Under the pieces are notes generated by a model. That model had not been told where the DNA came from and ran no database searches. It worked only from the letters and a program-made list of their open reading frames with translations. The position numbers and the translations under genes are program-made. From assembly GCF_014926405.1 (NCBI RefSeq), contig NZ_JACXXJ020000001.1:62001-126000 (forward strand): a stretch of DNA of 64,000 bases, given 5' to 3'. Of this stretch, positions 14,850 through 44,465 are shown piece by piece (position 1 is the first letter of the stretch; the number at the start of each line of letters is the position of its first letter). The stretch is from Agrobacterium vitis (GTDB taxonomy: Bacteria > Pseudomonadota > Alphaproteobacteria > Rhizobiales > Rhizobiaceae).

Positions 14850-15554
14850 ATGCAGCATTGGCTGGACAAGCTGACCGATCTTACCGCAATTGAGGGCGAT
14901 GAGTGCATCCTCAAAACAGGGCTGGCGGACGTCGCCGACCATTTCGGCTTCACCGGCTATGCTTATCTCCACATCCAGCACAAGCACATCATCGCCGTGA
15001 CCAACTATCATCACGATTGGCGGTCGCTCTACTTCGACAAGAAATTCGACGCTCTCGACCCGGTCGTCAAACGCGCAAGATCCAGGAAGCACGTCTTCGC
15101 CTGGTCTGGCGAGCAGGAGCGCCCGAGACTATCGACAGAAGAGCGTGCCTTCTATGCACAAGCGGCCGATTTTGGCATCCGCTCCGGCATCACCATCCCC
15201 ATCAGGACCGCCAACGGTTCGATGTCGATGTTCACGCTGGCGTCGGAGAGGACGGCAATCCCGCTTGATCGGGAGATCGATGCGGTTGCAGCAGCGGCGG
15301 CCGTCGGGCAGCTCCATGCCCGCATCTCCTTCCTTCGCACCTCGCCCACCGCGGAAGATGCCGCATGGCTCGATCCGAAAGAGGCGACCTATCTGAGATG
15401 GATTGCCGTCGGCAAGACGATGGAGGAGATCGCGGACGTGGAAGGGGTCAAGTACAACAGTGTCCGCGTCAAGCTTCGCGAGGCCATGAAGCGCTTCGAC
15501 GTCCGCAGCAAGGCTCATCTCACCGCGCTCGCGATCAGAAGAAAACTGATCTGA
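14850..15554 (+). CDS. traR: TraR, LuxR-family quorum-sensing activator of conjugation, copy 1
   Basis: A 234-aa LuxR-family regulator that dimerises on binding N-3-oxooctanoyl-homoserine lactone and activates the tra operons at tra boxes. The known ligand residues are present: Tyr53, Trp57, Asp70, Trp85 and Thr129. The C-terminal helix-turn-helix region (about 178-219) includes GKTMEEIADVEGVKYNS. It is the last gene of the octopine/nopaline-type operon, so its expression should follow that opine. It differs from the copy at 43761 at seven residues (18, 81, 93, 96, 164, 165, 199). In this copy Gly199 is present, as in well-studied TraR proteins. Confidence 0.96.
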   Translation: MQHWLDKLTDLTAIEGDECILKTGLADVADHFGFTGYAYLHIQHKHIIAVTNYHHDWRSLYFDKKFDALDPVVKRARSRKHVFAWSGEQERPRLSTEERAFYAQAADFGIRSGITIPIRTANGSMSMFTLASERTAIPLDREIDAVAAAAAVGQLHARISFLRTSPTAEDAAWLDPKEATYLRWIAVGKTMEEIADVEGVKYNSVRVKLREAMKRFDVRSKAHLTALAIRRKLI

Positions 15555-15588
15555 ACGAATAGCGGTCGAGCATTCAATTTGGTGCCAG

Positions 15589-16611
15589 CTAGAAATCGCT
15601 GGAGACCAATCGTCTGGCGGCAGCTTCGTCCGTGATGAGCACGTCGGCATATCCAGCTCGAAGAACGGCCGCCAGGGCCTGTGCCTTCCCGATCCCACCT
15701 CCGCAAAGAACAACTTCTGGCACGTCCTTGAGGCGGTCCAACGGCAGGCCGATCACTCGATCGTTAAGGGCGTGATCGACGAGCGTCCCATCCTTGTTGA
15801 TGAACCAGCCGACAAACGAACCTACAGCCCCGGCTTTTACGAGCGAATCCATCTCTTCTTCCTGCAAGAGATCATAGGCGCGAATCACACCATCTTCGGT
15901 CAGTCGGCCCACTCCGATGATAGCAATATCCACTGCCGCAGCTCGTCGCATGATCTCCTGAACAAGTGACTGCGCTAGAAACTCATCCCGCGCCTTCTTG
16001 GACTCGGCGTAGGTTGGCGCCGGCATATAGTAGCATTCCGCTTGATAGATCTGCGCGAGCTGATGAGCGACTTCGTAGGGGCGCATTGCCGCCTTCACAG
16101 TCAGTCCGCCAATCATCGAAACAATAGAGAGGCCCGGTATTGCCCGCGCTTCCAGTGCAGACAGGGCGGCATGGAAAGTCCGCCCCGAGATAATTCCCAA
16201 ACTCATCTGATCGGAGAGACGAGCATTAAGGTATTGGCCGATGCCAGCTCCGACCGCCTCAGGAGTCGAATCGGACCGAACAGGAGCCGGAACCACGACC
16301 GCTTTGCGAAGGTCAAATTTTGCAACAAGCTCTTTTTCCAGCAGCGGGCTGCTAACGTATGGCGACCTGATGCTAACCTGGACAATGCCATCCTGACGTG
16401 CCCGGGCGAGAAGGCGGTTTACCTTTAGCCGGTGCATGCCGAGTTCGCTGGCAACTTCTTGCTGGGTCAGGCCCTCAACATGATAAAGCCAGGCCACGCG
16501 CGCCAGCAATTGCTCGCGCCCCCCGGCGAACGACTCGGGAGGCTCCCAATTATCCTCATTCGGCTCGTCTTTTGTCCGCCTCATCCGTCTGTTCCTTGCC
16601 CTGAAGCTCAT
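15589..16611 (-). CDS. SorC/DeoR-family sugar-binding transcriptional regulator
   Basis: A 340-aa regulator with an N-terminal helix-turn-helix (GLTQQEVASELGMHRLKVNR, near residues 46-66) and a C-terminal sugar-phosphate-binding domain typical of the SorC family (SLGIISGRTF, IIGVGRL, CGGGIGKAQA). These proteins usually control sugar uptake operons in response to a phosphorylated sugar. It is the second gene of a minus-strand pair, its start overlapping the stop of the histidine phosphatase by four bases. The pair diverges from the transporter operon at 17472, its most likely target. An ATG at 16584 is an alternative start. Confidence 0.87.
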   Translation of the reverse strand: MSFRARNRRMRRTKDEPNEDNWEPPESFAGGREQLLARVAWLYHVEGLTQQEVASELGMHRLKVNRLLARARQDGIVQVSIRSPYVSSPLLEKELVAKFDLRKAVVVPAPVRSDSTPEAVGAGIGQYLNARLSDQMSLGIISGRTFHAALSALEARAIPGLSIVSMIGGLTVKAAMRPYEVAHQLAQIYQAECYYMPAPTYAESKKARDEFLAQSLVQEIMRRAAAVDIAIIGVGRLTEDGVIRAYDLLQEEEMDSLVKAGAVGSFVGWFINKDGTLVDHALNDRVIGLPLDRLKDVPEVVLCGGGIGKAQALAAVLRAGYADVLITDEAAARRLVSSDF

Positions 16612-43640: not shown

Positions 43641-43760
43641 GCAACCTGGTGAGACCGGGAAGCCACATCCCATCTAAAGTTCAGCCATCGATGTCCTCGA
43701 TATACTGTCGGACGAACAGCGACGACGAGGATACTGGCGACACCTAGAAGGAGATAGAGA

Positions 43761-44465
43761 ATGCAGCATTGGCTGGACAAGCTGACCGATCTTACGGCAA
43801 TTGAGGGCGATGGGTGCATCCTCAAAACAGGGCTGGCGGACGTCGCCGACCATTTCGGCTTCACCGGCTATGCTTATCTCCACATCCAGCACAAGCACAT
43901 CATCGCCGTGACCAACTATCATCACGATTGGCGGTCGCTCTACTTCGACAAGAAATTCGACGCTCTCGACCCGGTCGTCAAACGCGCAAGATCCAGGAAG
44001 CAGGTCTTCGCCTGGTCTGGCGAACAGGAGAGGCCGAAGCTATCGGAGGAAGAACGCGCCTTCTATGCACAAGCGGCCGATTTTGGCATCCGCTCCGGCA
44101 TCACCATCCCCATCAGGACCGCCAACGGTTCGATGTCGATGTTCACGCTGGCGTCGGAGAGGACGGCAATCCCGCTTGATCGGGAGATCGATGCGGTTGC
44201 AGCAGCGGCGGCCGTCGGGCAGCTCCATGCCCGCATCTCCTTCCTTCGGATCACGCCCACCGCTGAAGATGCCGCATGGCTCGATCCGAAAGAGGCGACC
44301 TATCTGAGATGGATTGCCGTCGGCAAGACGATGGAGGAGATCGCAGACGTGGAAGAGGTCAAGTACAATAGTGTCCGCGTCAAGCTTCGCGAGGCCATGA
44401 AGCGCTTCGACGTCCGCAGCAAAGCTCATCTCACCGCGCTCGCAATTCGAAGAAAACTGATCTGA
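43761..44465 (+). CDS. traR: TraR, LuxR-family quorum-sensing activator of conjugation, copy 2
   Basis: A second 234-aa TraR, seven residues different from the copy at 14850. All acyl-homoserine lactone contact residues (Tyr53, Trp57, Asp70, Trp85, Thr129) are intact. In the DNA-binding domain residue 199 is Glu instead of Gly (ADVEEVKYN), in the turn before the recognition helix, which could alter tra box binding. GGAG at 43751-43754 is the ribosome binding site. It lies behind splA at the end of the acc-type cluster, so it should answer to the agrocinopine-like signal through AccR. Confidence 0.95.
   Translation: MQHWLDKLTDLTAIEGDGCILKTGLADVADHFGFTGYAYLHIQHKHIIAVTNYHHDWRSLYFDKKFDALDPVVKRARSRKQVFAWSGEQERPKLSEEERAFYAQAADFGIRSGITIPIRTANGSMSMFTLASERTAIPLDREIDAVAAAAAVGQLHARISFLRITPTAEDAAWLDPKEATYLRWIAVGKTMEEIADVEEVKYNSVRVKLREAMKRFDVRSKAHLTALAIRRKLI

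What the first reader, a model, noticed from the sequence alone, without database searches (positions are those of the whole stretch)
14850..44465. Two near-identical traR genes, each at the end of a different opine-type operon
The sequence shows two 234-residue TraR proteins differing at seven residues, 28.9 kb apart. One follows an arginine-opine operon (dehydrogenase, arginase, ocd, methyltransferase, peptide transporter), the other an agrocinopine-type operon ending in splA. This would let either of two opines switch on conjugation. pAtK84b is described as having the same design (nopaline and agrocinopines acting through separate traR copies), so the principle is known. The gene content of both operons here seems different enough to deserve comparison.
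Basis: partly seen in the sequence, partly recalled or inferred. Interest (0 to 1): 0.8.

Follow-up and report, generated by a model that had tools for sequence, protein, structure and literature searches.

The report
Four opine-linked conjugation switches, one plasmid
A grapevine-associated Agrobacterium plasmid carries not two but four intact copies of the gene that switches on its own transfer, each at the end of a different plant-tumour-nutrient operon, and the copies appear to be the joints at which such operons are swapped and stacked.

Summary
Two intact 234-residue TraR genes (7 residues apart) lie in the window; two more lie just left of it on the same 187-kb repABC contig (C1). All four point the same way, each behind a separate catabolic operon: A, hutIGUD in a histidine-opine (cucumopine) region; B, an agrocinopine-like operon with a ROK regulator; C, octopine (not nopaline); D, the double agrocinopine operon of pAtK84b. 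Each unit has its own linked regulator, and all four TraRs keep the pocket and DNA residues checked. The likeliest reading is a four-input OR gate for conjugation, extending pAtK84b's two inputs; induction is inferred, not shown. Public pAvF25c has the same four and pAtAg67 three, so this is a variant of a known kind. Two points go further: traR genes are hinges where operons and downstream modules were recombined (five combinations; B and D share a 1,508-bp identical tract), and the nopaline Ti plasmid contig beside it has traI, traM and tra-box-like sites but only a traR fragment, so C1 may command it.

The parts
14850..15554 (+). traR-C, 234 aa, at the end of the octopine operon
   Evidence: NF010444 444.6 bits; ORF
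43761..44465 (+). traR-D, 234 aa, at the end of the agrocinopine operon
   Evidence: NF010444 442.3 bits; ORF
14793..14849 (+). leader (about 57 bp) of traR-C, where its homology to copies B and D begins
   Evidence: self-BLAST; leader comparison
43704..43760 (+). leader (57 bp) of traR-D, identical to that of traR-B
1..2750 (+). octopine uptake genes occQ (cut by the window start), occM, occP, occT
   Evidence: mapped from annotated pAvF25c, 96-98.5% identical, no internal stops
2824..5748 (+). opine oxidase ooxB, (2Fe-2S) protein, ooxA
5745..9418 (+). ridA, rocF arginase, ocd, homocysteine S-methyltransferase family gene
   Evidence: rocF 326.9 bits against cut-off 227.6
9483..14442 (+). peptide-type ABC transporter of the octopine operon
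   Evidence: of the ATPase only the last 126 bp were mapped; ORF 12844-14442
15589..16584 (-). sugar-binding (SorC/SmoC-like) regulator, convergent with traR-C
   Evidence: PF04198 204 bits
16608..17255 (-). histidine-phosphatase superfamily gene
   Evidence: PF00300
17472..23526 (+). first phosphodiester-type ABC transporter with GDPD gene of module D
   Evidence: 98.6-100% to pAvF25c
24607..25380 (+). accR-type DeoR regulator 1
   Evidence: PF00455/PF08220
25581..27133 (+). first accA-type binding-protein gene, reading frame broken here
   Evidence: 7 stops in the mapped frame
27620..28393 (+). accR-type DeoR regulator 2
28583..33689 (+). accA2-accB-accC-accD-accE agrocinopine-type transporter
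   Evidence: ABC/oligo_HPY for accB
33786..36287 (+). two GDPD phosphodiesterases (accF-type) and an inositol-monophosphatase-type gene (accG-type)
   Evidence: PF03009, PF00459
36488..43637 (+). NUDIX, TIM-barrel, DUF4432, Na/Pi transporter, galM, gtfA/splA
44479..44796 (+). short ORF after traR-D on the same strand; a gene at this place is annotated as hypothetical in relatives
   Evidence: ORF; relatives
45248..45556 (-). traM antiactivator, the only TraM found on C1
   Evidence: PF09228 115.4 bits; genome search
51904..51921 (+). tra-box-like site upstream of traA (perfect match to the recalled consensus)
   Evidence: C1:113904, 0 mismatches
48438..51818 (-). traA relaxase of the transfer system that TraR would switch on
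   Evidence: TIGR02768 1121 bits

Best explanation
C1 is a conjugative opine-catabolic repABC plasmid with a four-input OR gate for transfer. Each of four catabolic operons, under its own regulator, carries traR at its end, so metabolising any one substrate should raise TraR above TraM and, with TraI-made acyl-HSL, open the shared tra/trb promoters. Inputs: A, HutC-controlled hutIGUD-traR, probably urocanate from histidine released from cucumopine; B, an agrocinopine-like sugar phosphodiester via a ROK regulator; C, octopine via OccR; D, agrocinopines via AccR/SorC-type regulators. Shown: four intact TraR ORFs with conserved checked residues, same-strand position behind different operons, different linked regulators, one traM on C1, traI, tra-box-like sites. 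Inferred: co-transcription, ligands, and that each copy alone suffices.
For: Four full-length TraRs on C1 (A, C, D also by family model). W57, Y53, D70, W85, T129 and positions 187, 189, 190, 203, 206, 210 equal those of octopine TraR in all four (residue roles recalled, and my recalled label for 203 was wrong: it is N in all). dN below dS for all six pairs. No + strand terminator-like site in the gaps before traR-C and traR-D; B was not scanned, but its gap is identical to D's. occR-occQ region conserved with octopine Ti NC_002377. HutC over its family cut-off; the only two TGTATATACA-like sites on C1 lie before hutH and hutI, and both recur in the stretches read of pAvF25c, pAtAg67 and pRi_26-59. 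Operon B lies beside a gene annotated agrocinopine synthase in pAvCG412. Two-copy precedent: pAtK84b (paper passages).
Against: No expression or mating data. traR-A is 447 bp behind hutD, with one weak + strand terminator-like hairpin in between (3 found in the region on both strands, 0.9 expected). A promoter-like site lies before traR-C (window 14601-14628; 1 found, 0.4 expected), so that copy could have a start of its own. The number of HutC-like sites is not above shuffles (2 against 1-4), pRi_26-59 has two more, and the consensus is recalled. Recombination between B and D could keep copies intact without separate selection. The first accA-type gene of module D is frame-broken. TraR-D is followed by a short same-strand ORF.
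Confidence: 0.7

Rival explanations
1. The extra traR copies are by-products of recombination: traR is a repeated joint at which operons are exchanged between plasmids, and only one or two copies (most likely D and C) matter for control.
For: Recombination inside traR: PHI-type test p=1/1001 on 16 distinct sequences, 45 sites. B/D identical for 1,508 bp between divergent flanks. AG67_C has the octopine upstream and D-type downstream; F25_D and Gle_D have B-type downstream for 80 bp; noc or occ operons precede the same C-type downstream (noc by annotation).
Against: All four C1 copies are intact with conserved checked residues and low dN/dS. Being a joint does not exclude being a switch.
Confidence: 0.2
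2. traR-A answers to free histidine/urocanate and not to an opine, so conjugation can be triggered by an ordinary amino acid.
For: traR-A follows hutI-hutG-hutU-hutD with a HutC-like site in the hutF-hutI gap; HutC on the same plasmid.
Against: The block also holds hydantoinase/oxoprolinase-type genes and transporters, is colinear with pRi_26-59, and is called the cucumopine-catabolic region in pAtAg67 (PMC10745273, passages), so the usual source may still be cucumopine.
Confidence: 0.3
3. Extra TraR only adds dosage or counters TraM, without separate inputs.
For: One traM on C1 plus further TraM genes on C2 and C3.
Against: Four different linked regulators and operons make constant dosage unlikely.
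Confidence: 0.08

Closest known systems
pAtK84b (CP000630), Agrobacterium K84
   Same: opine-catabolic plasmid; module D gene order (but for one adenylate-kinase-like gene) and the C-type downstream joint; separate traR copies per opine operon (paper passages)
   Different: Two traR (noc, acc). Here octopine stands in place of nopaline before the joint, and two further traR-tailed operons (hut/cucumopine and ROK phosphodiester) are stacked upstream
pAvF25c (NZ_CP055272), A. vitis F2/5
   Same: Same four traR-tailed operons in the same order
   Different: IS66 insertion in the gtfA region of module D; its traR-B and traR-D are identical to each other but 35-38 nt from the C1 B and D copies; B-type downstream of traR-D for 80 bp
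pAtAg67 (NZ_CP079858), octopine-cucumopine catabolic plasmid
   Same: hut-traR, ROK-traR and occ-traR modules
   Different: Three traR; in the stretch read no agrocinopine module D lies between its last traR and traM, and that traR joins the octopine operon directly to the D-type downstream
Octopine Ti plasmid NC_002377
   Same: occ operon ending in traR, similar control region
   Different: One traR annotated in the 22 kb read (two places by nucleotide search, the second not examined); no stacked opine operons seen there
pRi_26-59 (NZ_KY000033)
   Same: hut/oxoprolinase block colinear at about 71-83% identity
   Different: No traR after hutD in the stretch read; a small LuxR-HTH-like ORF instead

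Membership tests
Multi-traR opine-catabolic repABC plasmid (pAtK84b kind) | repABC replicon | tested here: met
   RepA, RepB, RepC over cut-offs on C1
Multi-traR opine-catabolic repABC plasmid (pAtK84b kind) | Ti-type tra/trb with traI and traM | tested here: met
   TraA, TraG, TrbE, TraI over cut-offs; TraM PF09228
Multi-traR opine-catabolic repABC plasmid (pAtK84b kind) | no vir system or T-DNA opine synthase on the plasmid | tested here: met
   Limited test, two families only: the one VirB4/TrbE-family hit on C1 is TrbE; no Octopine_DH (PF02317) hit on C1. Other vir genes were not searched on C1
Multi-traR opine-catabolic repABC plasmid (pAtK84b kind) | two or more intact traR, each ending a different opine operon | tested here: met
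   Four by position; that A and B handle opines is inferred
Multi-traR opine-catabolic repABC plasmid (pAtK84b kind) | each traR induced by its own opine | not testable with these tools
   needs reporters and matings
TraR (LuxR-type quorum-sensing activator) | full-length match to the family model | tested here: met
   A, C and D scanned: 448, 444.6, 442.3 bits against 250; B not scanned with this model, but it has the PF03472 domain and differs from D by one residue
TraR (LuxR-type quorum-sensing activator) | acyl-HSL pocket and DNA-contact residues | tested here: met
   the 11 positions checked equal octopine-type TraR in all four (roles recalled); octopine-type TraR has solved structures 1h0m/1l3l
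Octopine occ-traR operon | OccR, occQMPT, ooxAB, ocd, then traR | tested here: met

The most novel reading that the evidence does not exclude
traR works as a portable hinge-plus-switch: any operon that recombines into a traR both joins the stack and becomes a conjugation trigger. On this plasmid that has built a four-input gate with one input (HutC/urocanate) that an ordinary amino acid could pull, and the resident Ti plasmid, which has traI, traM, tra-box-like sites and transfer genes but only a traR fragment, is switched on in trans by the catabolic plasmid.
Probability: 0.3. Interest if true: 0.75.

Novelty: new variant of a known kind. Interest (0 to 1): 0.55.

Why it matters
The two-opine control of pAtK84b has looked like a special case. 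With this plasmid, pAvF25c and pAtAg67 it looks like part of a graded series (one to four traR-tailed operons) built from interchangeable modules, which makes it directly testable how a plasmid integrates several plant signals and how new nutrients become transfer signals. The Ti plasmid with only a traR fragment beside it suggests that spread of a virulence plasmid may depend on a harmless-looking neighbour.

Tried and rejected
Assembly artefact: rejected, because the four copies have different flanks that recur in independently sequenced plasmids.

Nopaline operon in the window: rejected; the noc operon is in front of this joint in pAtK84b, Gle002 and 12D1, but here it is occ.

TraR feedback box inside the octopine operon: one site with up to 6 mismatches, against 2-6 in ten shuffles; nothing claimed.

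A TmsP-like route as in pAoF64/95 (PMC6341043, passages): not looked for on C1 beyond the tblastn with TraR, which gave the four copies and otherwise only weak hits (E 1.7 or worse). The small HTH-like ORF after hutD in pRi_26-59 is a lead only.

pTiLBA1190 (MZ913311) as a direct record of recombination at traR: it was not among the 12 of 83 records listed for a probe from pTiAg57, so nothing is concluded.

Papers: the searches and the passages I saw showed no description of four traR on one plasmid. Oger and Farrand 2002 and the 2022 pAtAg67 paper are not held: I saw them as reference entries and as cited in other papers; the latter may well describe three traR copies. The 2015 repABC comparison (identifier recalled) is not held either.

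Full report
OBSERVATION. Window 14850-15554 and 43761-44465 encode two 234-aa TraR proteins (NF010444, 444.6 and 442.3 bits, cut-off 250) that differ at 7 residues. The window is C1:62001-126000 of a genome held in 7 contigs; C1 is 187,327 bp. A PF03472 search of the genome gave 14 matches, four of them on C1, and all four are 234-aa TraR ORFs: A 48714-49418, B 59854-60558, C 76850-77554, D 105761-106465. A tblastn of TraR against all of C1 found these four and otherwise only hits with E 1.7 or worse. So the finding saw two of four.

FOUR OPERONS. Genes were named by mapping 67 annotated CDSs of pAvF25c onto C1 and by family searches. A: hutI, hutG, hutU, hutD, then traR-A after 447 bp; hutC, hutH, hutF, hydantoinase/oxoprolinase-type genes and an ABC transporter lie beside it. 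B: ABC transporter, GDPD, inositol-monophosphatase-type gene, Na/Pi transporter, gtfA, traR-B, with a divergent ROK regulator. C: occQMPT, ooxB, FeS protein, ooxA, ridA, rocF, ocd, methyltransferase, peptide-type transporter, traR-C, with OccR. D: two phosphodiester-type transporters, two accR-type regulators, accF/accG-type enzymes, gtfA, traR-D. Of the 67 CDSs, 66 map without internal stops and one (the first accA-type gene) is frame-broken; the ROK gene and a short ORF before traR-C map with a length not divisible by three, and of one transporter ATPase only the last 126 bp were mapped. All four traR genes lie on the + strand. A, B and C are followed by a gene on the opposite strand (ROK, OccR, SorC-type); D is followed by a short same-strand ORF, annotated as hypothetical at that place in relatives, and then by traM on the opposite strand.

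SIGNALS. The occR-occQ region aligns with three other octopine operons at 89% mean column identity, so octopine control of C is the firmest. For A, HutC passes its cut-off (268 against 220 bits). Two sites within one mismatch of TGTATATACA occur on C1, at 35357 before hutH and at 43675 in the hutF-hutI gap. Five shuffles give 1-4 sites, so the number is unremarkable, but both places are right; the same two site sequences recur in the stretches read of pAvF25c and pAtAg67 (two sites each) and of the colinear pRi_26-59 (four sites). The pAtAg67 region is called cucumopine-catabolic in PMC10745273 (passages), and NCPPB2659 is named a cucumopine strain in PMC5606197 (passages); that 26-59 is that strain is my assumption. 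For B, the same block sits between the octopine operon and a gene annotated agrocinopine synthase in pAvCG412; pTi_CFBP2407 and pTiAg57 have the same DNA there at 99.9% or more, with no gene named so at that place (hypothetical proteins). So a phosphodiester opine of those tumours is the likely substrate.

ARE THE COPIES WORKING? All 11 positions checked in the acyl-HSL pocket and DNA-binding part equal octopine TraR, whose structure is solved. dN/dS from the values is about 0.1 for A against the others and 0.13-0.22 among B, C and D. C1 has one traM, a traI, and tra-box-like sites at 10809 and 113904, none in three shuffles. Scans found no + strand terminator-like site before traR-C or traR-D, one promoter-like site before traR-C (1 found, 0.4 expected), and one weak hairpin before traR-A; B was not scanned, but its gap is identical to D's.

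traR AS A HINGE. Homology of C to B and D begins 57-58 bp before ATG and ends within 10 nt after the stop codon; B and D share gtfA as well; A is matched by BLAST from 2-11 bp before ATG. I compared 23 traR genes from ten plasmids plus that of NC_002377. A PHI-type test on 16 distinct B/C/D-type sequences with 45 informative sites gave 0.318 against 0.409 expected, p=1/1001. F25_C is identical to Gle_noc from nt 274 on. In C1, B and D differ at 65 sites in the first 762 bp compared, at none in the next 1,508 bp, and at 5 in the last 22 nt of the gene. Within-plasmid B-D differences are 0, 3 and 5 nt in F25, CG412 and C1, against 35-38 between F25 and C1 genes in the same position; C1 and CG412 are one lineage, so this is two cases. 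For 16 traR genes in nine fetched stretches, matches to the C1 flanks and the annotation show occ+C-down, noc+C-down, occ+D-down, gtfA+D-down and gtfA+B-down, with the downstream match starting within 3 nt of the stop codon (for the two A copies at +48). The octopine operon also occurs without traR, followed by IS66 and opine-dehydrogenase genes, in pAvCG412 and pTiAg57. In the tree of 24 genes 10 of 19 inner branches are open and positions are mixed, as expected under recombination.

HOW COMMON. In the plasmid collection 197 records hold TraR at E 1e-90 or better, 262 places; 60 of the 197 were listed: 4 records with four places (pAvF25c, a second 200.7-kb A. vitis record, MZ913311 and MZ913312), 2 with three, 22 with two, 32 with one. 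Of the four-place records I read annotation for pAvF25c (four traR) and for the first 50 kb of MZ913311 (three traR). In 394 family genomes 21 had TraR at 1e-60; none but the own genome had four matches, though only seven candidates per genome were scored and many assemblies are fragmented. Close relatives of the window may be left out of the collection.

THE TI PLASMID BESIDE IT. Contig C2 (152,864 bp; not shown to be complete) is 99.5% identical over 101.7 kb to the nopaline-type Ti plasmid of A. vitis T60/94. It has TraI and TraM and tra-box-like sites, but the only TraR match better than E 0.2 is a C-terminal fragment of about 115 residues, as in T60/94 pTi. C3 has one traR split by an IS110-type element and one TraR at 63% identity with its own TraM. 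TraR proteins of one plasmid are reported to act on promoters of another in A. tumefaciens 15955 (PMC7856919, passages). So C1 may drive C2; the 63% TraR on C3 is another candidate.

KNOWN OR NEW. Two-copy control is known for pAtK84b (passages in PMC6546132, PMC4231840, PMC7856919). pAtAg67 has three annotated traR, pAtCFBP4996a three places (two annotated in the stretch read), pAvF25c four. I found no text describing four, or a hut-linked traR, but key papers are not held. Verdict: new variant of a known kind.

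Noticed in passing
window 25581-27133: First accA-type binding-protein gene of module D has a broken reading frame here; a full-length gene is annotated in pAvF25c and pAtK84b.
   Followed up: partly
G000:C2 (L079-L086), fragment at C2:100584-100901: Nopaline-type Ti plasmid contig with traI, traM and tra-box-like sites but only a C-terminal traR fragment; the same in T60/94 pTi (L097-L100).
   Followed up: partly
G000:C3:1327481-1329561 (L059): traR interrupted by an IS110-type element beside a traM; leaves an open N-terminal TraR frame of about 170 residues, about the size of the TrlR product (size recalled).
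   Followed up: partly
L028:24187-24354: Small LuxR-HTH-like ORF (32% to TraR over 56 columns) after hutD in pRi_26-59, where C1 has traR-A; reminiscent of TmsP.
   Followed up: no
G000:C1:49013, 60153, 77149, 106060: A longer recalled HutC-site pattern with 3 mismatches also matches the same spot inside each traR coding sequence; most likely chance within a repeated gene.
   Followed up: no
L027:27208-27912: pAtCFBP4996a has a traR behind another operon with opine-oxidase and dehydrogenase-type genes, a further traR-tailed module type.
   Followed up: no
G000:C1:48865-49465: traR-A differs from F25/AG67 traR-A at 37-38 sites (against F25 all from nt 152 on) and in the first 47 nt downstream, so this copy too looks mosaic, from an unidentified donor.
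   Followed up: partly
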